In this document: one piece after another, positions 15,688 to 25,144 of the stretch
How positions within the stretch are numbered: position 1 is the stretch's first letter
Layout of the letters: every line of letters starts with the position of its first letter
Source of the DNA: Chlamydiifrater volucris
GTDB lineage: Bacteria > Chlamydiota > Chlamydiia > Chlamydiales > Chlamydiaceae
Direction: 5' to 3'
Assembly (NCBI RefSeq): GCF_902806995.1
Contig: NZ_LR777654.1
Coordinates: 1,133,354-1,197,353 of the forward strand
Length of the DNA: 64,000 bases
Notes under the pieces: generated by a model
Told to the model about the DNA's origin: nothing
The model's database searches: none
Seen by the model: only the letters and a program-made list of their open reading frames with translations
Made by a program: the position numbers and the translations under genes

Positions 15688-17574
15688 ATGGGAAGAAGTG
15701 GTAGAGTTATCGTTGTCGGGGGAGGATTGGCTGGATTATCTGCAGCGATAAAGTTAGCAGACGCTGGGCTGCTTGTGGAAATCATTTCTTTGACCAAAGT
15801 TAAGAGGTCACATTCTGTTTGTGCTCAAGGTGGAATAAACGCTGCAGTCAATCTCAAGGAAGGAGAGGAGGATTCTCCTCACAGACATGCTTACGATACG
15901 ATAAAAGGGGGAGATTTTTTAGCAGATCAACCCCCTGTTTTAGAAATGTGCTTGGCTGCTCCTAGAATTATCAGAATGTTGGATAATTGGGGATGTCCTT
16001 TCAACAGAAATTCAAAAGGGGAGTTGGATGTACGACGTTTTGGAGGAACACTCTATAGTCGAACAGTGTTTTGTGGAGCGTCCACTGGTCAACAGTTGAT
16101 GTATACTCTAGATGAGCAAGTACGACGCAGGGAAGTGGCCGGCCACATTACGAAAAGAGAAAACCATGAGTTTGTCAGACTAGTGATGGATGACTCTGGA
16201 CGGACATGTGGTGTTGTTCTCATGAATTTATTCAATAACCGTCTGGAGATTTTGTCAGCAGATGCTGTTGTCATAGCTACAGGCGGGCCTGGCGTTATAT
16301 TTCGCTTGTCTACAAATTCTGTTTTTTGCACAGGGTCTGCTAATGGAAAATTATTCATGCAAGGTATGCACTACGCGAATCCTGAATTTATTCAGATCCA
16401 TCCTTCAGCTATTCCAGGAAAAGACAAATTACGGTTGATATCAGAATCTGTTCGAGGAGAGGGTGGACGAATTTGGGTCCCTGGGGATGCTTCGAAGACT
16501 TTGCTATTCCCTGATGGTTCGAAAAGGGCTTGTGGACAGACAGGAAAACCTTGGTATTTCCTAGAAGAGATGTATCCCGCTTACGGAAATCTGGTTAGCA
16601 GAGATGTGGGAGCTAGAGCTATCTTGCAAGTGTGTGAAGCTGGAATGGGTATTGGGGGAGGTCAGGAAGTATTTTTAGATGTCACACACTTACCTGCTGA
16701 AAACAGAAAAAAATTGGAAGCTGTTTTAGAAATTTACAGAAAATTTACCGGAGAAGATCCAAATACTACGCCTATGCGGATCTTTCCTGCTGTTCATTAT
16801 TCCATGGGTGGGGCTTGGGTGGATTGGCCAGCTGCTGATGATATTGATAGAAATAAACGCTACCGGCATATGACAAATTTAGAAGGCTGTTTCAATTGTG
16901 GGGAGTCAGATTTCCTATATCACGGAGCTAATCGGTTAGGGGCAAATTCGCTATTATCTTGTATTTACGCAGGGTTTTTAACGGGCGATGAAGTAGCCGC
17001 TTTCATCAGAGATAAGGGACACCAAAATAAAGTTTCTTCTTCGGTTTTTGAAAATTCTCTAACGGAGGAAAAAGAATATAATGAGAAGTTATTGAAAAAT
17101 TCTGGCAGAGAAAATGTTTTTCGTCTTCATGAAGAAATAGCGGACGTTATGGTGAAGAATGTCACAGTAAAAAGAAATAACAAAGACTTGAAAGACACCT
17201 TAGAAAAGCTTAAAGAGTTTCGAGAAAGATTTAACAATATAGGGATACAAGATTCTTCAAAATTTGCCAACAAAACCTTCCATTTTGCTAGAAGGTTAAA
17301 GCCTATGCTTGAGCTGGCTTTAGCTATTACTAAGGGTGCTTTATTGCGAAATGAATTTAGGGGGTCGCATTTTAAACCGGAGTTCCCTGAACGAGACGAC
17401 AAAAATTGGTTGAAGACAACTATTGCAAGTTACTCTCTAGATGAACCATCTATTTCCTACGTGCCTGTTGATGTAAGACATGTTGTGCCAGTGTCCAGAG
17501 ATTACACGAAGGGAAATAAAGAGGAAAAGATAGAGTTAATGAATGTACCTCAAAATATAAAGCTGCCTGTATAG
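15688..17574 (+). CDS. sdhA: Succinate dehydrogenase flavoprotein subunit
   Basis: 628 residues. The N-terminal FAD-binding fold is GGGLAGLSAAIKLADAGL (about 10-27); SHSVCAQGGIN holds the His expected to bind FAD covalently. Downstream are substrate-site segments HPSAIPG, SESVRGEGGR, SRDVGAR and HYSMGG, and the C-terminal FAD contact RLGANSLL. The longer C-terminal region matches the Bacillus-type enzyme. Oxidises succinate to fumarate in the truncated chlamydial TCA cycle. CT592 orthologue. Confidence 0.96.
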   Translation: MGRSGRVIVVGGGLAGLSAAIKLADAGLLVEIISLTKVKRSHSVCAQGGINAAVNLKEGEEDSPHRHAYDTIKGGDFLADQPPVLEMCLAAPRIIRMLDNWGCPFNRNSKGELDVRRFGGTLYSRTVFCGASTGQQLMYTLDEQVRRREVAGHITKRENHEFVRLVMDDSGRTCGVVLMNLFNNRLEILSADAVVIATGGPGVIFRLSTNSVFCTGSANGKLFMQGMHYANPEFIQIHPSAIPGKDKLRLISESVRGEGGRIWVPGDASKTLLFPDGSKRACGQTGKPWYFLEEMYPAYGNLVSRDVGARAILQVCEAGMGIGGGQEVFLDVTHLPAENRKKLEAVLEIYRKFTGEDPNTTPMRIFPAVHYSMGGAWVDWPAADDIDRNKRYRHMTNLEGCFNCGESDFLYHGANRLGANSLLSCIYAGFLTGDEVAAFIRDKGHQNKVSSSVFENSLTEEKEYNEKLLKNSGRENVFRLHEEIADVMVKNVTVKRNNKDLKDTLEKLKEFRERFNNIGIQDSSKFANKTFHFARRLKPMLELALAITKGALLRNEFRGSHFKPEFPERDDKNWLKTTIASYSLDEPSISYVPVDVRHVVPVSRDYTKGNKEEKIELMNVPQNIKLPV

Positions 17575-17583
17575 GAGGGTCTT

Positions 17584-18372
17584 TTGAGTAACGAGAAATT
17601 TTCGCGGACGTTTATATTAAAGGTTTTTCGAGGAACACCAGGTTGTCAGTTTTGGGAGCAGTTTTCTTTGCCTTTGCGGCCAGGGGAAAATGTTATAAGT
17701 GCTCTGATGGAAGTGGAGAAAAATCCCGTCAATATAGACGGAAAATCAGTTGATCCCATTGTATGGGAACAAGGTTGCTTGGAAGATGTTTGTGGATCCT
17801 GTTCCATGCTTATCAACGGAAGACCAGCTCAAGGTTGCACAGCATTGATAGCTAATCTATTAGAGGAAACAGGGACAGACACTGTCACTTTAGCCCCTTT
17901 TACTAAGTTTCCTTTAATCAGAGATTTAATGGTTGATAGATCTATCATGTTTGAGAACCTCAAAAGAGTACAGGCTTGGGTGGAGAATCCAATGGAGGGG
18001 GATAAATATGGAGTCGCTGTGTCTCAGGACCAACAGGAGTTAATGTACACGTTGTCTACTTGCATGACTTGTGGTTGTTGTGCAGAATCGTGTCCACAAG
18101 TCCACGACGAATCGGACTTTATTGGGCCTGCACCCGTTTCACAGGCGCGACTTTTCAATACTTATCCAGGAGACAGAAATACGAGAAAGCGATTGAAGGT
18201 TCTGGCAAGCAGAGGAGGTTTAGAGGGGTGTGGGCAAGCGCAAAATTGCGTAAGAGTTTGTCCCAAAAAATTACCTTTAACGGAAAGTATTTCTGCTATG
18301 GGAAGAGCTGTTTTGAAACATGAAGTTTTTTCTTTTTTTAGCTCCTTCTTTAAGAAAAAAAAGAAAAAATAA
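17584..18372 (+). CDS. sdhB: Succinate dehydrogenase iron-sulfur subunit
   Basis: 262 residues. Starts at TTG 17584 with AGGAGG at 17574-17579 that overlaps the sdhA stop; no ATG lies nearby in frame, so a TTG start is well supported. Cluster ligands: 2Fe-2S CLEDVCGSCSML...C (about 60-80), 4Fe-4S CMTCGCCAESCP (about 160-171) and 3Fe-4S CGQAQNCVRVCP (about 219-230). The C-terminus is a Lys-rich tail of about 12 residues. Normally followed by a convergent CT590 gene in C. trachomatis; here the MOMP array intervenes 4 bp later. CT591 orthologue. Confidence 0.95.
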   Translation: MSNEKFSRTFILKVFRGTPGCQFWEQFSLPLRPGENVISALMEVEKNPVNIDGKSVDPIVWEQGCLEDVCGSCSMLINGRPAQGCTALIANLLEETGTDTVTLAPFTKFPLIRDLMVDRSIMFENLKRVQAWVENPMEGDKYGVAVSQDQQELMYTLSTCMTCGCCAESCPQVHDESDFIGPAPVSQARLFNTYPGDRNTRKRLKVLASRGGLEGCGQAQNCVRVCPKKLPLTESISAMGRAVLKHEVFSFFSSFFKKKKKK

Positions 18373-18376
18373 TTGT

Positions 18377-19270
18377 TCATAAAACAGGTAATATTTTTCT
18401 AGACTTCAATTTATTCAAGGTGACGGATACTTTGGTTAAAACATCCGCATGAGCTGTACCTGTAGATGTTCCGGATAGTGTGGGGTTCCATGTAGATAAA
18501 TTGAATAAGGCTGAGTCTAGCTGTGGTTGAGCAATATAAGCGCCATCGAAGTCGATTTTAGCTCTAGACCACTTGATACCGATGTAAGGCGAAATAAAGT
18601 TGAGTCTGTAAGCTAAAGCCAATCCTACTTGCCACTCACTGTAATCAGCAATCACAGCTTTTGTTTTTTCTAATTTTGGAGCTCCAGAGGATTCTGCTGG
18701 TAAAGGAAGTTTGGTTTCTTTCCCAACAAATCCCTTAGGATGAGCGATAGAGAATTGAGCGACGTTAGAGACGACATTGATTTGAGAGATTTCGGGTTTG
18801 GCTTGAGCATATTGGAATTCCGCCCCTAGTGTAGCACACCCGCATTCCCAAAGAGCGCCTCTAGCCCCGATGCTCCAAGAAAACTCAGCATCCGTGTAAA
18901 GTTCCACGAAAGCATTTCCTATGGAGGCGTTAGGAACAACTGTTGCATTGATGGCATCAGTGTTTCCAATGAGTCCAACAAGATTAAAAGCAGCCGAAGA
19001 TCCTTTGATATAGGCGTTAGTAGTGCCTAGGGTACAGAAGACATCGAAGCGATCCCAGATATTGAGAGCGAGATAGCCTGCATTGGTGTAGAGTTCAGAT
19101 TGCGTCATATTTTTGTGCAGAGCTACGTTGGGTCTTTCTTTTCCTACGAAGTGACTTGATACAGCCGTATCTGATTCCTCCTCAGACATAAAGAAGGTAT
19201 TGGGTACATCGGTTTTAAGGAGTCTATTGAAGACGTAGTCGCCGAAGAAGCCCGCGCGTAAAGAGAGAGC
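18377..19270 (-). pseudogene. MOMP cassette 1 (partial ompA, no start, no signal peptide)
   Basis: The downstream-most unit. The MOMP-like frame is open from the constant segment LSLRAGFFGDYVF (19270) to a TAA at 18377. The first ATG at 19189 is the internal Met equivalent to that in the mature MOMP segment EFQMG, without a ribosome binding site, so it is not a real start. Hallmarks: LNIWDRFDVFCTLG, ALWECGCATLGAEFQYAQ, YRLNFISPYIGIKWSR. Variable domain 2 reads IGNTDAINATVVPNAS. Its 3' end is unique in the array: it keeps LNKLKSRK, as in true MOMP, then stops after ILPVL; it lacks the hairpin linker of the others. The last 50-60 MOMP residues are absent. Confidence 0.85.
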
Positions 19271-19350
19271 GTGGGCTTCGAGGTTAGGCTTTTCTTGCAG
19301 AAAAGCCTAATAGATGTATAAGCCCCTCTATTGTATAGAGGGGCTAATCC
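19271..19350 (-). repeat. Cassette 2/1 junction linker with two hairpins
   Basis: Hairpin A: TAGGCTTTTC (19285-19294), loop TTGCA, GAAAAGCCTA (19300-19309), a perfect 10-bp stem. Hairpin B: AGCCCCTCTAT (19321-19331), loop TGT, ATAGAGGGGCT (19335-19345), a perfect 11-bp stem. The loop of hairpin A differs from the other junctions (TACAA there), which removes the stop codon that ends cassettes 3 and 4. Confidence 0.85.
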
Positions 19351-20253
19351 TTTAACCTTCAATTTATTCAAGGTGACGGATACTTTTGTTAAAACATCTT
19401 TCATTTGATTTGTTACTGTGCCTAAATTATCTCCAGCCAGTGTGGGATTCCAGGTGACGAGGTCCAACTTTTCTGCATCTAGTTGAGGTTGGGCGATATA
19501 AGCGCCATCGAAGTCGATTTTAGCTCTGGACCACTTGATACCGATGTAAGGAGAGATAAAGTTAAGTCTATAAGCTAGAGCCAATCCTACTTGCCATTCA
19601 CTATAATTTGCTGATAAAGATTTTGTTTTTGAAAAATCTGGCAATGGAGAGGTTGTGGTTTTTGTTGGCAAAGGTAATTTAGCAAATTCCCCAACGAAAC
19701 CTTTAGGATGGGCAATAGAGAATTGAGCGACGTTAGAGACGACATTGATCTGAGAGATTTCGGGTTTGGCCTGAGCATATTGAAATTCTGCCCCTAGTGT
19801 AGCACATCCGCATTCCCAGAGAGCACCTCTAGCGCCAATACTCCAAGAAAACTCAGCATCGGTGTAGAGTTCTACGAAAGCATTGCCGATTGAAGCATTA
19901 GGATAGGCCTTATCTATGTCGGTTATTGATGTGTCCGTATCAGTAACTCCCAATAATCCTACGAGATTAAAAGCATTGGAAGATCCTTTGATGTAGGCGT
20001 TGGTAGTGCCCAGGGTACAGAAGACATCGAAGCGATCCCAGATATTGAGAGCAAGGTAGCCAGCGTTGGTATAAAGCTCAGATTGCGTCATATTTTTGTG
20101 CAGAGCCACGTTGGTTAAGTCTTTGCCAGTGAAGTTACTGCTTGCAGCTGCATCTGTACTTTGGTTCGACATTTTAAAAGTAGGAGGGACATCGGTTTTA
20201 AGGAGTCTATTGAAGACGTAGTCGCCGAAGAAGCCCGCGCGTAAAGAGAGAGC
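19297..20253 (-). pseudogene. MOMP cassette 2 (partial ompA, no start, no signal peptide, lost stop)
   Basis: MOMP frame open from LSLRAGFFGDYVF (20253; in fact from a stop codon at about 20290) through LNKLK and the linker-encoded tail LYNRGAYTSIRLF. Where cassettes 3 and 4 stop with TAG, this copy has TGC-AAG, so its frame runs on out of register through cassette 1 for 50 more codons to 19144; that tail is not MOMP. Variable domains: VD2 LLGVTDTDTSITDIDKAYPNAS, VD3 EFAKLPLPTKTTTSPLPDF, VD4 AEKLDLVTWNPTLAGDNLG. The internal ATG at 20172 lacks a ribosome binding site. Confidence 0.85.
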
Positions 20254-20330
20254 GTGGGCTTCGAGGTTAGGCTTTTCTACAAGAAAAGCCTAATAGATGT
20301 ATAAGACCCTCTATTGTATAGGGGGTCTAA
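20254..20330 (-). repeat. Cassette 3/2 junction linker with two hairpins
   Basis: Hairpin A: TAGGCTTTTC (20268-20277), loop TACAA, GAAAAGCCTA (20283-20292). Hairpin B: GACCCTCTAT (20305-20314), loop TGT, ATAGGGGGTC (20318-20327), ten positions with one T-G pair. Nearly identical to the 4/3 junction; one base differs in the shared GAGGYTAGG segment. Confidence 0.85.
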
Positions 20331-21239
20331 TCCTTTAACCTTCAATTTATTCAAGGTGACGGATACTTTAGTGAGTACGTCTTGAAATTTATCTGTAACA
20401 GCAGTATCTATCTTGTCCCCGGCTAAGGTTGGGTTCCAGGTAAGTAAGTCAAATTTTGCTTCAGTAAGTTGAGGTTGGGCGATATAAGCGCCATCGAAAT
20501 CGATTTTAGCTCTAGACCACTTGATGCCGACATAGGGGGAGATAAAGTTGAGTCTGTAAGCTAAAGCAAGTCCTACTTGCCATTCACCATAGTTCGCGGA
20601 CACAGATTTGGTTTTTGTAAGATTTGGTTGAGTGGAATTTGTAGCCATTGTAGGTAGTGGAAGTTTAGCATCTTCTCCGACGAAGCCTTTAGGATGAGCG
20701 ATAGAGAATTGAGCGACGTTAGAGACGACGTTGATTTGAGAGATTTCGGGTTTGGCTTGGGCATACTGGAATTCCGCACCTAGTGTAGCACACCCGCATT
20801 CCCAGAGAGCGCCTCTAGCACCGATGCTCCAAGAAAACTCAGCATCCGTGTAAAGTTCTACAAAAGCATTTCCAATAGAAGCATTTGGAACGGCTTTATC
20901 TACATCAGTTATCCCTGACGTATTTGTATCATTAATGCCCAGGAGTCCAACCAAATTAAAAGCTGCTGAGGACCCTTTGATGTAAGCATTGGTAGTGCCT
21001 AGGGTACAGAAGACATCGAAGCGATCCCAGATATTGAGAGCGAGGTAGCCTGCATTGGTATAGAGCTCCGATTGCGTCATATTTTTGTGCAGAGCCACGT
21101 TGGTTAAATCTTTGCCAGTAAATTGCCCATGAGCTGCATCTGTACCTTGGTTGGACATTTTGAAGGTATTGGGTACATCGGTTTTAAGGAGTCTATTGAA
21201 GACGTAGTCGCCGAAGAAGCCCGCGCGTAAAGAGAGAGC
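20277..21239 (-). pseudogene. MOMP cassette 3 (partial ompA, no start, no signal peptide)
   Basis: MOMP frame open from LSLRAGFFGDYVF (21239; open back to the stop at 21276-21278) to TAG at 20277. No start codon exists between that stop and the internal Met codon at 21158. Variable domain 1 contains NQGTDAAHGQFTGKDLT, VD2 LLGINDTNTSGITDVDKAVPNAS, VD3 EDAKLPLPTMATNSTQPNL, VD4 EAKFDLLTWNPTLAGDKID. The constant cysteines in FCTLG and ECGCATLG are kept. Ends with the linker tail LYNRGSYTSIRLFL in place of the native MOMP C-terminus. Confidence 0.85.
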
Positions 21240-21316
21240 GTGGGCTTCGAGGCTAGGCTTTTCTACAAGAAAAGCCTAATAGATGTATAAGACCCTCTAT
21301 TGTATAGGGGGTCTAA
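21240..21316 (-). repeat. Cassette 4/3 junction linker with two hairpins
   Basis: Hairpin A: TAGGCTTTTC (21254-21263), loop TACAA, GAAAAGCCTA (21269-21278), perfect 10-bp stem that includes the TAG stop of cassette 4. Hairpin B: GACCCTCTAT (21291-21300), loop TGT, ATAGGGGGTC (21304-21313). Together with the common LSLRAG-coding block it gives direct repeats of more than 100 bp at each end of a cassette. Confidence 0.85.
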
Positions 21317-22243
21317 TCCTTTAACCTTCAATTTATTCAAGGTGACGGATACTTTTGTTAAGAGGTCTGCATATCGCGTCGCTGTACCAGTTCCGGCTAA
21401 AGTTGGGTTCCAGGTAAGAAGGTCTGATTCTGCTGTTTCTAGCTGAGGTTGGGCGATATAAGCGCCATCGAAATCGATTTTAGCTCTGGACCATTTGATA
21501 CCGACATAAGGCGAGATAAAGTTAAGTCTATAAGCTAGAGCCAATCCTACTTGCCATTCACTATAATTTGCTGACACAGATTTAGTTTTGCTGAGATCAG
21601 GAATGGATTTATCGTCCAGTGTAGGTAAAGGAAGTTTAATATCTCTTCCAACGAAACCTTTAGGATGGGCGATAGAGAATTGAGCGACATTAGAGACGAC
21701 GTTGATTTGGGAGATTTCGGGTTTGGCCTGAGCGTATTGGAATTCCGCACCTAGTGTAGCACACCCGCATTCCCAGAGAGCACCTCTAGCGCCAATACTC
21801 CAGGAAAACTCTGCGTCTGTGTAAAGTTCTACAAAAGCGTTTCCGACGGAAACGTTGGGTACGGTTGTTTCGATGTTATTTGCTTCGGTTGTATCAGTAT
21901 TCCCAAATAGTCCGACAAGATTAAAAGCAGCCGAAGATCCTTTGATGTAGGCGTTAGTAGTACCTAGGGTACAGAAGACGTCGAAGCGATCCCAGATATT
22001 GAGAGCGAGGTAGCCTGCATTGGTATAGAGCTGAGATTGTGTCATATTTTTGTGAAGAGCTGTATTTGGTCTTTCTGTACCGGAAAAACTGTTAGCTCCT
22101 ACAGTACCTGTTTTAGCTGCTGACATAAAGAAGGTATTGGGTACATCGGTTTTAAGGAGTCTATTGAAGACGTAGTCGCCGAAGAAGCCCGCGCGTAAAG
22201 AGAGAGCGTCGCACCAAGTGGAGCAAGGGTCGCAAGGATCTCC
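21263..22243 (-). pseudogene. MOMP cassette 4 (partial ompA, most upstream, keeps the CDPC segment)
   Basis: The most complete 5' end: in-frame sequence NGDPCDPCSTWCDALSLRAG matches MOMP from its conserved Cys-rich segment, while the other three start only at ALSLRAG. The frame is open back to the stop codon of the CT590-like gene at 22286-22288, but contains no start codon until the internal Met at 22126 and no signal peptide. VD1 starts SAAKTGTVGANSFSGTERP, VD2 LFGNTDTTEANNIETTVPNVS, VD3 RDIKLPLPTLDDKSIPDL, VD4 TAESDLLTWNPTLAGTGTA. Ends with TAG at 21263 after the linker tail. No promoter is apparent in the 42 bp behind the CT590-like gene. Confidence 0.86.
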
Positions 22244-22285
22244 GTTAGTTCTTTTTGTATTGATTTGATAGTTTTGTCTAAAGGA

Positions 22286-25144
22286 TTAGAAAAATCCTTT
22301 AGGCAATCCAGATCGATAACCTGGGGGTGGGGGCATACCGTACTGGACAGGGTCGGAGAAGAGGACCCATTCCTGGGAAATATTTAGATATTGTTCCCAT
22401 TCTACCATAGGGAACCCATTGGCTCCGACATAATTAAATCCCCAGAGTTCTACAAGACCATTCCCCGGATTTACTGTAAATCCTAGGTAAGTATTGTCCC
22501 AATTTGAGTCTGCAAACAGCAACGGAGCGGGGTAAGCAAGTTTATGGTGTCGCATAGCGGATAATGTACGGAAGTACAGATCTTCGTCAAAATGTGTTTT
22601 TTGTAAAGCTTGGAGAAGTATGCAAGAGAACAAATGAAGAAAATCTGTCGAAGACAAGAAAGAAAATTTACCGAAATGATCTTCTATTATTTGTTGAAGA
22701 TGAATTTTTTTTACTTTTGAATATACCCCAACGTAAGAGGCGACTTTCTCTACAGCGTCAGGAACTGACTGTTCTGGAATTAATGGAATCAATTGGAAAA
22801 GGGTTTTACAGAGGAGTTTTTTTAATTGTAGGTTGGGATGTTGGTTGTTTTGTTCAAAGAACTTTAAAATTTTTGTATAGAATTCTGGGAGAGTCAAAGA
22901 GAAATCTTCAAAGAAAGAAAACATATCTTCTGCCAGGGAAGAGAAGTGTAAATTTTCTGTGAGCTTTACAATTAAGGCATGAATTTCTTGTTTTGAGAGT
23001 ATATGGGACGATAAAAACTGCTCATGTTGTTTTACCCATACATCTCGGATCCATGTGTAGCTATACCAATCGTTATTCCAAGCATCTATGAATAAAGGAT
23101 GGGAAGGGATTATGGAGAAAGCATGATTAGGAGAAGTTGTGATGAGACTATGTCCTTCTTCTAGGTAGCTCTTGATTTTCATTGGAAGGTCTTTTAAAGC
23201 GTCTGCGTAGAAAGCTATAAGTTCATGGGCATTTTCTGGGTGTTTTTTCATATTTGCCAGTGGAGCACTTTCTTCAAAGTAACAAGAGGCAAAAATAGAT
23301 AAAGATCCCCCAGAGATATATGTCCATGGTGTAAACGGTAAAGAATCTGTTTTTGTTATTGATAAATCTTGTTTGGGGCAGTTGTAGTGAGAAAGAATTC
23401 TGTCGAAAGCTCCGGAGAGGAAAATGTCCGAGTGTATGAAAGCTGTAATATTTTGAATAATGAAGCTTACTTCTTCTTTGATGGTAGATATGGATCGTTT
23501 ATCCTTAATTTCTTGATCCATAAAGGAAAAGAAGCTTGATAAGAACTGTATATATTCTGCCGAGGAGTATATAGGGGACCAAGCGTAATTATTTGCTCTT
23601 CCGTGGGTAAAGAACAATCGGAATCCTGCAGCGGAGTCGGAATATGAAGCACTTGCTGTTGGTAGCAATTCCGCATCATAGGAGCTCTTGAAATATGCTG
23701 GAAGTAAGTTTGATAACGATTTAAAGAAAAATTGTGGAAAAGAGAGCAAATGTTTGATTTTTTCTTTTATTTGCTCCCAATCGTAGAGGGACGCATTTAA
23801 TTCTTGCTGAAACCTATGATGATCATAGGACAAAATTTGATTGTCTTGGGAGTTTATGGGATTTTGCATACGACTATTTACGTAGTCGAGCTGGGATTGA
23901 GCTTCATAGTACCTAGATTCGCAATCTTTCGCTGCTAGGTTTAGTTTTTCTAACAGGTTATGAATAGTTTCTTCAAGGACACTGCCGATGCAAGAAACGT
24001 CTTTGTTATCGATTCCCATACCTACTAGTAGGTGAGAAGTTGTTTTATCAGAGGGTTTTTCTGCCAGCGTAGCTAACGAGAGTTCCCAAACCTTTAGTAG
24101 GGCATTCTGAGACATATCTACAAAAGCATTTCGAGCTCTTTCATAAGCTTGCAGATATTGGTGGGTGTTGGGGAAGGCCCCGTTTGGAGCATCCTTTTCT
24201 CTGATTCTTTGAGAAGAAAGGTTTTGTTTGACCTGATCTCCCTTAAGGTTAAAGATGTGAAGTAAAGTAGATTGGATGATTTCGTGGGCAGTAATCGATG
24301 CTAAAGGATCAGAAAGTTTTTCTGTTAAATACTCGTTAGCCAGCAATGTTTGGAGTTGTCGCTCTGGCTGTTGTTCTAAGGAGAAGATATTGGCTGCGGA
24401 GAAAGCTTGTAGTAGTTCAGGAGAGGAGGCTATAGCAACGAATGGATCTGGGTACAAAGAAGAAATTGCTACGGGAGTGTACAGATCTCCTAAGGATGCA
24501 GATAAATTAATGGGGGCCACATATTCCTTATCATCGATAATTCTTGATAGACGACCACTGCTTAGTAATTTGTCAATATCGGTAATAAACTTTTCCGGAT
24601 ATTCCTTTTGTACAATGATGGCTAGAGCTGAAGCAAAGCAAGTTCCGACATCTTGTCTAAGATAAGAAAGCAGAGCTGATACAGCAGCTCTACGGGCATG
24701 AGCAACGGAAAGTTCTTCTTCAGGAGGGAGAGCAAGTGTGCGTCGAATAATGTTTTGCATAGCTTTTTGTGTAGGAAGAAAAATTCGTTTTAGAGTGTCT
24801 TTGATGTCGGGTTTCTCTTTGATAGCTTTTAGCATGTTGAGTGTATGTTCTCGAAAAGGAGCTTCTTCCTGTCGAAAAGGGCCTAAAGGGTAAACACCCT
24901 TAGATAAAGTTGTTATGGAGGATACTACAATAGAAATATCCAATTCACCAGAATCAGAAATAATCCTTTGAGCCAAAGATCTGGCAAGTTTTAAATTTCT
25001 AAAAGCAAATGGATTTAGAAATCTTTGGAAAGAAAGTAGGTGAGAGCTTTCTGCATCTTCCTCGAAGAAAATACTCTCCTCATCAGAAAGATTTCTAGCC
25101 TTAACGATATCTTGGAAAACAGAGAGATGAAAATTTCTCATCAC
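22286..25144 (-). CDS. Large chlamydial protein of unknown function (CT590-like), with a papain-like Cys/His/Asn pattern
   Basis: 952 residues, unique to Chlamydiaceae in my knowledge (CT590). No signal peptide or clear membrane helix; mostly helical and acidic/polar. Residues 164-171 read QDVGTCFA, similar to the QxGxCxx(A/S) oxyanion/nucleophile box of papain-like peptidases (Gln164, Cys169). Near the C-terminus RHHKLAYPAPLLFADSNW has His then Asn-Trp 14 residues later, as around the papain His and Asn, and is followed by LGFTVNPGNGLVELWGF, which could form the barrel. I infer a possible papain-like or transglutaminase-like fold with a very long insertion; this is not established. M1 or M2 may be the start. 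It lies upstream of the MOMP array on the same strand. Confidence 0.75.
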   Translation of the reverse strand: MMRNFHLSVFQDIVKARNLSDEESIFFEEDAESSHLLSFQRFLNPFAFRNLKLARSLAQRIISDSGELDISIVVSSITTLSKGVYPLGPFRQEEAPFREHTLNMLKAIKEKPDIKDTLKRIFLPTQKAMQNIIRRTLALPPEEELSVAHARRAAVSALLSYLRQDVGTCFASALAIIVQKEYPEKFITDIDKLLSSGRLSRIIDDKEYVAPINLSASLGDLYTPVAISSLYPDPFVAIASSPELLQAFSAANIFSLEQQPERQLQTLLANEYLTEKLSDPLASITAHEIIQSTLLHIFNLKGDQVKQNLSSQRIREKDAPNGAFPNTHQYLQAYERARNAFVDMSQNALLKVWELSLATLAEKPSDKTTSHLLVGMGIDNKDVSCIGSVLEETIHNLLEKLNLAAKDCESRYYEAQSQLDYVNSRMQNPINSQDNQILSYDHHRFQQELNASLYDWEQIKEKIKHLLSFPQFFFKSLSNLLPAYFKSSYDAELLPTASASYSDSAAGFRLFFTHGRANNYAWSPIYSSAEYIQFLSSFFSFMDQEIKDKRSISTIKEEVSFIIQNITAFIHSDIFLSGAFDRILSHYNCPKQDLSITKTDSLPFTPWTYISGGSLSIFASCYFEESAPLANMKKHPENAHELIAFYADALKDLPMKIKSYLEEGHSLITTSPNHAFSIIPSHPLFIDAWNNDWYSYTWIRDVWVKQHEQFLSSHILSKQEIHALIVKLTENLHFSSLAEDMFSFFEDFSLTLPEFYTKILKFFEQNNQHPNLQLKKLLCKTLFQLIPLIPEQSVPDAVEKVASYVGVYSKVKKIHLQQIIEDHFGKFSFLSSTDFLHLFSCILLQALQKTHFDEDLYFRTLSAMRHHKLAYPAPLLFADSNWDNTYLGFTVNPGNGLVELWGFNYVGANGFPMVEWEQYLNISQEWVLFSDPVQYGMPPPPGYRSGLPKGFF

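What the first reader, a model, noticed from the sequence alone, without database searches (positions are those of the whole stretch)
18377..22243. Array of four silent MOMP cassettes: a candidate antigenic-variation system
Seen: four tandem minus-strand copies of the middle of MOMP, each running from LSLRAGFFGDYVF to LNKLK, so each spans all four surface-exposed variable domains. None has a start codon at its conserved 5' end, a ribosome site, a signal peptide or the terminal barrel strands, yet all four frames are open across the MOMP-homologous part. Constant segments are near-identical at DNA level and changes cluster in the variable domains as whole-codon indels. Known: in C. trachomatis ompA is a single locus far from here, and sdhB and CT590 are adjacent. 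Promoterless, truncated, variable copies flanked by long conserved DNA are the structure of silent donor cassettes (Borrelia vls, Neisseria pilS). Inference: they feed gene conversion into a complete ompA elsewhere, which would give MOMP antigenic variation. I have a vague, unverified memory of multiple ompA-family genes reported in a non-Chlamydia genus of the family, so novelty should be checked.
Basis: partly seen in the sequence, partly recalled or inferred. Interest (0 to 1): 0.96.

Follow-up and report, generated by a model that had tools for sequence, protein, structure and literature searches.

The report
Silent cassettes rewriting a chlamydial porin
A genome of the exact size of a flamingo-isolated relative of Chlamydia carries nine start-less copies of the middle of its main surface-porin gene, and its one complete porin gene is identical to one of these copies over 902 bases, so the copies likely overwrite the working gene and would let the bacterium change its surface.

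Summary
The four cassettes are real, and there are five more. The genome has the chromosome and plasmid sizes of Chlamydiifrater volucris O50: one complete ompA plus nine truncated copies, five (A1-A5) about 7-12 kb from ompA and four (B1-B4, the window array) about 111 kb away. Truncated ompA copies are already published; no text that I could search proposes what they do. Support for the donor reading: (1) O50 ompA is identical to cassette A2 over 902 nt, while the other 44 pairs in that genome are 70-81% alike. (2) In the sister species (15 cassettes) ompA is an exact two-part mosaic: 811 nt of its cassette A2, then 94 nt of the neighbouring A1, joined within 11 nt. (3) Cassettes lack the signal-peptide region, start context and a constant linker frame, yet inner constant segments have pN/pS 0.02-0.07 with free synonymous change, while both end segments are almost invariant within a species. 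Best reading: donor cassettes for gene conversion of ompA, like Anaplasma msp2 or Borrelia vls. Switching during infection and escape from immunity are inferred, not tested.

The parts
21326..22204 (-). Cassette B1 (C1 to C5, four variable domains), first of the array
22205..22244 (-). Extra 40 nt of ompA 5' sequence upstream of B1 (part of a 102-nt exact match to ompA nt 132-233)
20340..21236 (-). Cassette B2
19357..20250 (-). Cassette B3
18404..19267 (-). Cassette B4, last of the array
21237..21325 (-). Linker B1-B2 (89 nt) with two palindromes; the exact one is at 21255-21277
20251..20339 (-). Linker B2-B3 (89 nt) with two palindromes; the exact one is at 20269-20291
19268..19356 (-). Linker B3-B4 (89 nt) with two palindromes; the exact one is at 19286-19308
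17584..18372 (+). sdhB, neighbour on the left; array B sits between it and the CT590-like gene, which are adjacent in 4 of 4 relatives examined
22286..25144 (-).

Best explanation
The four copies in the window belong to a set of nine ompA (MOMP) cassettes without start or signal-peptide region, in a genome whose single complete ompA is identical to one of them over 902 nt, and they likely act as silent donors that overwrite the middle of ompA by RecA-type gene conversion. Shown: one complete ompA; nine cassettes in two clusters, each with all four variable domains between a near-invariant 5' segment (62 nt exactly shared with ompA) and 3' segment; ompA of O50 equal to cassette A2; ompA of the sister species an exact A2+A1 mosaic with one junction; strong protein-level constraint in the copies. 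Inferred: tracts begin and end in the shared end segments or inside the gene and carry whole or partial cassettes into ompA while the donor stays; selection would act on a cassette once ompA carries it; the result would be serial change of the four variable domains, that is, antigenic variation. The use in a host is predicted, not tested.
For: 902-nt identity of O50 ompA and A2, next longest exact match 140 nt; the other 44 pairs 0.70-0.81 identical. R47 ompA nt 167-977 = A2 and nt 967-1060 = A1, junction nt 967-977; p<=0.0005, 0.001 over all pairs on ungapped columns. pN/pS in C2-C4 0.024 (O50) and 0.069 (R47); 23 of 24 lengths divisible by 3, 22 of 24 without stop. End segments pS 0.04-0.06 within species. 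5' arm of 62 exact nt in 8 of 8 other O50 cassettes, 3' arm 18-29 nt. Truncated copies in 2 of 2 genomes of this genus and as such in none of the 18 genomes of the second genus. RecA, RecF, RecR, RuvC genes present. O50 and other isolates of the species differ in cassettes and share single domains.
Against: One assembled genome per species at DNA level; no subclonal or time-series data. In O50 the direction of copying is open, and the window cassettes match present ompA no better than paralogues outside the ends. The site-permutation test ignores autocorrelation and is uninformative for O50 ompA/A2 (p 1.0). End-segment conservation may partly be codon constraint, since ompA outside the cassettes is also conserved between species (pS 0.17, 0.13). 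No G4 or other known trigger found. Transcription not tested; RecO, RecJ, RecB not searched.
Confidence: 0.85

Rival explanations
1. Archive in reverse: the cassettes are mainly recipients that store past versions of ompA, with little or no flow back.
For: O50 A2 has nine extra ompA-like nt at its 3' edge (98-nt linker against 87-89); the matching slot is A2 in both species; an O77 protein with the same tail has another body (P0128; its slot is not known).
Against: R47 ompA has a single A2/A1 junction within 11 nt; two separate outgoing tracts would meet there only by chance.
Confidence: 0.07
2. Each cassette is expressed as its own truncated porin-like protein.
For: Strong purifying selection in C2-C4; open frames; a Met codon in VD1 begins the ORFs that a mechanical caller lists.
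Against: No signal-peptide region; no SD-like motif in 9 of 9 O50 cassettes; the same Met is internal in ompA; linker lengths not constant modulo 3; promoter-like sites in the window array no more than in shuffles (6 against mean 7.3); tract exchange with ompA.
Confidence: 0.04
3. Decaying tandem duplicates without function.
For: R47 A4 has a stop and R47 B4 a frameshift.
Against: pN/pS 0.02-0.07; 0 of 9 O50 cassettes with stops; exact copy and mosaic in ompA.
Confidence: 0.02
4. Assembly or polishing artefact that copied ompA into A2.
For: Such repeats are hard to assemble; ompA of isolate O09 could not be assembled (PMC12281945 section 24).
Against: The authors re-basecalled and re-assembled with long reads and call the clusters supported (section 18); a one-junction mosaic in R47 is not what a collapse gives; ompA and A2 have distinct flanks.
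Confidence: 0.02

Closest known systems
Anaplasma msp2/p44 functional pseudogenes and single expression site
   Same: Obligate intracellular bacterium of similar genome size; start-less donors with conserved ends around variable middles; segmental conversion into one expression site (PMC2789410 passages; PMC11946796 abstract start in listing).
   Different: Another protein family (PF01617 there per PMC2789410, PF01308 here); donors here are in two tandem arrays with palindromic linkers; switching not yet seen here.
Borrelia burgdorferi vlsE and silent vls cassettes
   Same: Contiguous array of silent cassettes matching the central region of one expressed surface gene; segmental conversion (PMC11499132 abstract start in listing).
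   Different: Plasmid-borne lipoprotein there; chromosomal porin here; arrays here lie 7 and 111 kb from the expressed gene.
Neisseria pilE/pilS
   Same: Truncated promoterless donors and one complete gene (recalled).
   Different: pilE uses a G4 upstream (recalled); no G4 near ompA or the arrays.
Treponema pallidum tprK donor cassettes
   Same: Putative outer-membrane protein with discrete variable regions filled by segmental gene conversion (PMC8480903, PMC10063172 abstract starts in listing).
   Different: tprK donors are single variable regions (recalled); here each cassette carries all four.
Truncated ompA-like porin clusters of Chlamydiifrater as published (PMC12281945)
   Same: The same loci: one full-length ompA, two clusters of truncated copies, 15 in R47.
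   Different: The paper gives 5 for O50 (annotated CDS) where nine cassettes are counted here, and its main text has no occurrence of recombin, conversion or antigenic.

Membership tests
Silent-cassette gene-conversion antigenic variation systems (general kind) | One complete expression locus and several incomplete donor copies | tested here: met
   1 complete ompA, 9 partial copies in O50; 1 and 15 in R47
Silent-cassette gene-conversion antigenic variation systems (general kind) | Donors share flanking homology with the expressed gene around variable middles | tested here: met
   62-nt exact 5' arm, 18-29-nt 3' arm in the O50 cassettes other than A2; variable domains 0.33-0.63 identical
Silent-cassette gene-conversion antigenic variation systems (general kind) | Expressed allele is a copy or mosaic of donors in the same genome | tested here: met
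   2 of 2 species
Silent-cassette gene-conversion antigenic variation systems (general kind) | Transfer runs from donor to expression site and leaves the donor intact | tested here: inconclusive
   Donor copies persist; direction supported in R47 by one junction, open in O50
Silent-cassette gene-conversion antigenic variation systems (general kind) | Donors are not transcribed | not testable with these tools
   No RNA data; start context absent
Silent-cassette gene-conversion antigenic variation systems (general kind) | Expressed variants change within one population or infection and escape immunity | not testable with these tools
   No read data
Anaplasma msp2/p44 system | Surface protein of PF01617 | tested here: not met
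   The copies match PF01308; works like it, not a member
Neisseria pilE/pilS system | G4 upstream of the expressed gene (recalled) | tested here: not met
   No G4 on either strand in L012 and window 17501-23000, nor in L043 1-8500
Chlamydial MOMP (PF01308) | Match above the curated cut-off | tested here: met
   10 of 10 ompA-type places, 340-510 bits against 20; one related solved sequence, 9oq7

The most novel reading that the evidence does not exclude
A two-way cassette engine in a chlamydial genus: slot A2 is the dedicated exchange partner of ompA in both species, so that the outgoing allele is archived while new ones are written in from both arrays, and the paired palindromes that precede 7 of 9 cassettes are the elements that start or bound recombination. 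This would be the first gene-conversion antigenic variation of a porin in the phylum Chlamydiota.
Probability: 0.2. Interest if true: 0.92.

Novelty: new member of a known kind. Interest (0 to 1): 0.82.

Why it matters
MOMP is the main surface antigen and a vaccine candidate in Chlamydiaceae, and ompA variation in Chlamydia is ascribed to polymorphism and recombination between strains (PMC10242142 passages). A reservoir of cassettes that feeds ompA inside the same cell would be a new route in this phylum. It would explain why Chlamydiifrater keeps 9-15 seemingly useless copies in a reduced genome, and perhaps why ompA of isolate O09 could not be assembled. It can be tested on existing reads.

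Tried and rejected
Neutral decay: rejected by pN/pS 0.02-0.07 in inner constant segments. Cassettes as fused two-unit proteins (613- and 616-aa ORFs in cluster A): rejected, since linkers are 87, 98, 87, 89, 89, 89 nt in O50 and 86-90 nt in R47, not constant modulo 3. G4-driven initiation: none found. Linker palindromes as classical terminators: the scan of the window array found one terminator-like site, inside B1 and not in a linker; no Rfam match. Structure of ompA: the predicted model was poor (mean pLDDT 45.7) and was not used. The first tract scan counted gap columns as sites and gave false VD1 runs caused by the long insertion of A1; replaced. One search also counts gap columns; one search repeats its R47 result without them. 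The first cassette scan missed units and was replaced. ompA DNA in plasmid records: no match. Complete ompA proteins of O99 and O77 are not among the listed representatives (120 of 249 listed, 76; database clustered at 90%), so their alleles could not be compared. Tandem OMPs in G021 were set aside: five complete genes, not cassettes.
Full report
What is there. The window is C1:1133354-1197353 of a genome of 1,203,673 bases in two contigs, C1 being 1,197,353. These are exactly the chromosome and plasmid sizes (1,197,353 and 6,320) listed for Chlamydiifrater volucris 15-2067_O50 (PMC12281945 Table 1, section 7 read). The comparison genome G019 has a 1,195,517-base chromosome, the size listed for Cf. 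phoenicopteri 14-2711_R47. The strain names rest on these sizes. A PF01308 search of the own genome gives one complete ompA (C1:1039339-1040526, +), nine partial copies and one distant family member. The partial copies form cluster A (A1-A4 on +, A5 on -, C1:1047261-1052012) and cluster B, the window array (B1-B4, window 18404-22204, -). R47 has a complete ompA, eight cassettes in cluster A and seven in cluster B.

Distribution. Among 22 Chlamydiaceae genomes such partial copies occur in 2 of 2 genomes of this genus. The 18 genomes of the second genus have one complete ompA each (most also a weak distant match); one genome of a third genus shows pieces along one 322-aa frame, and one of a fourth has five complete tandem OMPs. 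In a draw of 38 genomes of the order, 35 of them outside the family, no further case appeared at E<=1e-20. In 4 of 4 relatives examined, sdhB and the CT590-like gene are neighbours with 11-37 nt between the match ends, so array B sits at a junction that is empty in them.

Anatomy. Each cassette runs from LSLRAGFFGDYVF to LNKLK and holds all four variable domains; the first 57 residues of ompA and the last about 41 are absent, apart from remnants at the cluster edges. Of 24 cassettes, 23 have lengths divisible by three and 22 have no stop between these limits; the exceptions are R47 A4 (one stop) and R47 B4 (frameshift). Stops that one search reports in further R47 matches lie outside these limits, in the linkers. 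The first Met is inside VD1, has no SD-like motif upstream in 9 of 9 O50 cassettes, and is also internal in ompA. Linkers of 86-98 nt separate the cassettes and hold two palindromes. The second, AGGCTTTTCTnnnAGAAAAGCCT, has seven exact copies in the genome, all just upstream of cassettes (A1-A4, B2-B4), and one other place with 3 mismatches. Over 18 linkers (16 distinct) 98% of cells pair, against 94.1% in shuffles, and 13 cells have changes on both sides (0 of 500 shuffles as high; slid controls 0-6). Against: the number of pairs with both-side changes (3) and of further pair types (7) is not above shuffles (270 and 487 of 500 as high), and the second helix has no both-side change. What the palindromes do is unknown. 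At the outer 5' ends, A5 and B1 (A8 and B1 in R47) carry extra ompA 5' sequence, and the inner ends of cluster A carry an ompA 3' remnant, which suggests origin by duplication of ompA (inference).

The expressed gene and the cassettes. O50 ompA nt 172-1073 is identical to A2, 902 nt; the next longest exact match to any cassette is 140 nt, with A5. In the variable domains ompA is 0.33-0.63 identical to the other eight cassettes, and the other 44 pairs among the ten O50 sequences are 0.70-0.81 identical. R47 ompA nt 167-977 is identical to its A2 (811 nt) and nt 967-1060 to its A1 (94 nt); the junction lies in nt 967-977. Of the 105 R47 pairs (B4 left out) the highest identities are 0.967 (ompA/A2) and then 0.79. 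Permutation of polymorphic sites gives p<=0.0005 for R47 ompA with A2 and, with A2 removed, with A1, and also for O50 ompA with A5 when A2 is removed (gap columns counted); on ungapped columns and over all pairs these are 0.001 for ompA/A1 in R47 and 0.001 for ompA/A5 in O50. The test says nothing for O50 ompA with A2, which never differ (p 1.0). With ompA left out, 3 of 36 O50 pairs (A2/A5, B1/B3, B2/B3) and 3 of 91 R47 pairs pass 0.05 over all pairs. The test does not keep autocorrelation, so the marginal ones need care.

Direction. In R47 two adjacent cassettes explain the whole cassette region of ompA without a mismatch and meet at one point. Had ompA given tracts to A2 and A1 separately, their ends would agree within 11 nt only by chance, so ompA is probably the recipient (inference). 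In O50 the direction is open: A2 has nine extra ompA-like nt at its 3' edge, and an O77 protein with the same tail has another body (P0128). In both species the matching slot is A2, by chance or as a preferred partner.

Selection. In C2-C4, O50 cassettes (A2 included, ompA left out) have pS 0.43 and pN 0.010; R47 cassettes (ompA and B4 left out) have pS 0.57 and pN 0.039; variable domains have pN/pS 0.52-0.54. So copies without signal-peptide region or start context keep their protein nearly constant while silent sites vary. The simplest account is that cassettes are judged after entering ompA (inference). The end segments C1 and C5 have pS 0.04-0.06 within a species and 0.2 between species, against 0.69-0.76 in six neighbouring genes between species: the ends look homogenised, as expected of recombination arms. 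Caution: ompA outside the cassettes is also conserved between species (pS 0.17 and 0.13), so codon constraint may contribute.

Isolates. The protein database holds proteins from contigs with the lengths of O99, O09 and O77. The clusters of all 4 window cassettes (P0006, P0121, P0123, P0136) span two contigs, the longer of O99's length, so O99 has relatives of all four at 90% or more. Fifteen other proteins of O99, O09 and O77 were compared: none matches an O50 cassette in all domains. They are cluster representatives, hence chosen for being different, and say nothing on how many cassettes are shared. Some share one domain: O09 P0007 has the VD1 of O50 ompA and then diverges, O09 P0138 has the VD1 of A5, and O99 P0124 and P0125 share VD3 only. 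Published ompA lengths are 393-402 aa in four genomes (section 18); O50 has 396 with no alternative start in its frame and R47 has 393, so O99 or O77 should carry an allele of another length (inference). O09 ompA could not be assembled (section 24); the authors blame sequencing and assembly; a mixed population is another possible reason.

Machinery. RecA, RecR, RuvC and RecF genes are present above their cut-offs; RecO, RecJ and RecB were not searched. No G4 in the stretches examined.

What is known. Truncated ompA copies were reported in 2021 (Vorimore et al., not held, not seen; cited in PMC12281945) and studied in 2025 (PMC12281945: abstract, passages and sections 7, 18, 24 and 29 read). 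The 2025 main text has no occurrence of recombin, conversion or antigenic and says that integration of truncated products into the outer membrane may be impossible. Chlamydiifrater with antigenic variation: 0 papers. With recombination: 3, of which PMC11645104 and PMC10242142 were read in passages without any link to cassettes and PMC11545194 was seen in the listing only. The listings (the last shows 25 of 13,631) show no title or abstract start that proposes MOMP cassettes. Most subscription papers and bioRxiv preprints are not in the library, so the 2021 paper could hold such a remark.

Verdict. The reading as silent donors for ompA is well supported by sequence in two species; antigenic variation as its use is likely but untested. 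It is a new member of a known kind and, as far as these searches show, the first in its phylum.

Noticed in passing
window 19286-19308, 20269-20291, 21255-21277; L012 and L043/L044 linkers: Each linker between cassettes has two palindromes; the second has seven exact copies in the genome, all at cassette 5' borders, and the first shows paired changes between the species.
   Followed up: partly
L012 11716-12617 and L043 11233-12043: The cassette that matches the complete ompA is in the second slot of cluster A in both species.
   Followed up: partly
L045 4452-10420 (G021): Another genus of the family has five complete, diverged OMP genes in tandem at the ompA locus beside rpsB.
   Followed up: no
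L013 (C1:31662-32285, -): A distant PF01308 member just around the cut-off, with similar weak matches in most Chlamydiaceae genomes searched; perhaps the 'ompA family protein' of PMC12281945.
   Followed up: no
ompA nt 1-171 and the last 141 nt, O50 against R47 (L012, L043): Unusually few synonymous differences between species (pS 0.17 and 0.13) compared with 0.69-0.76 in six neighbouring genes.
   Followed up: no
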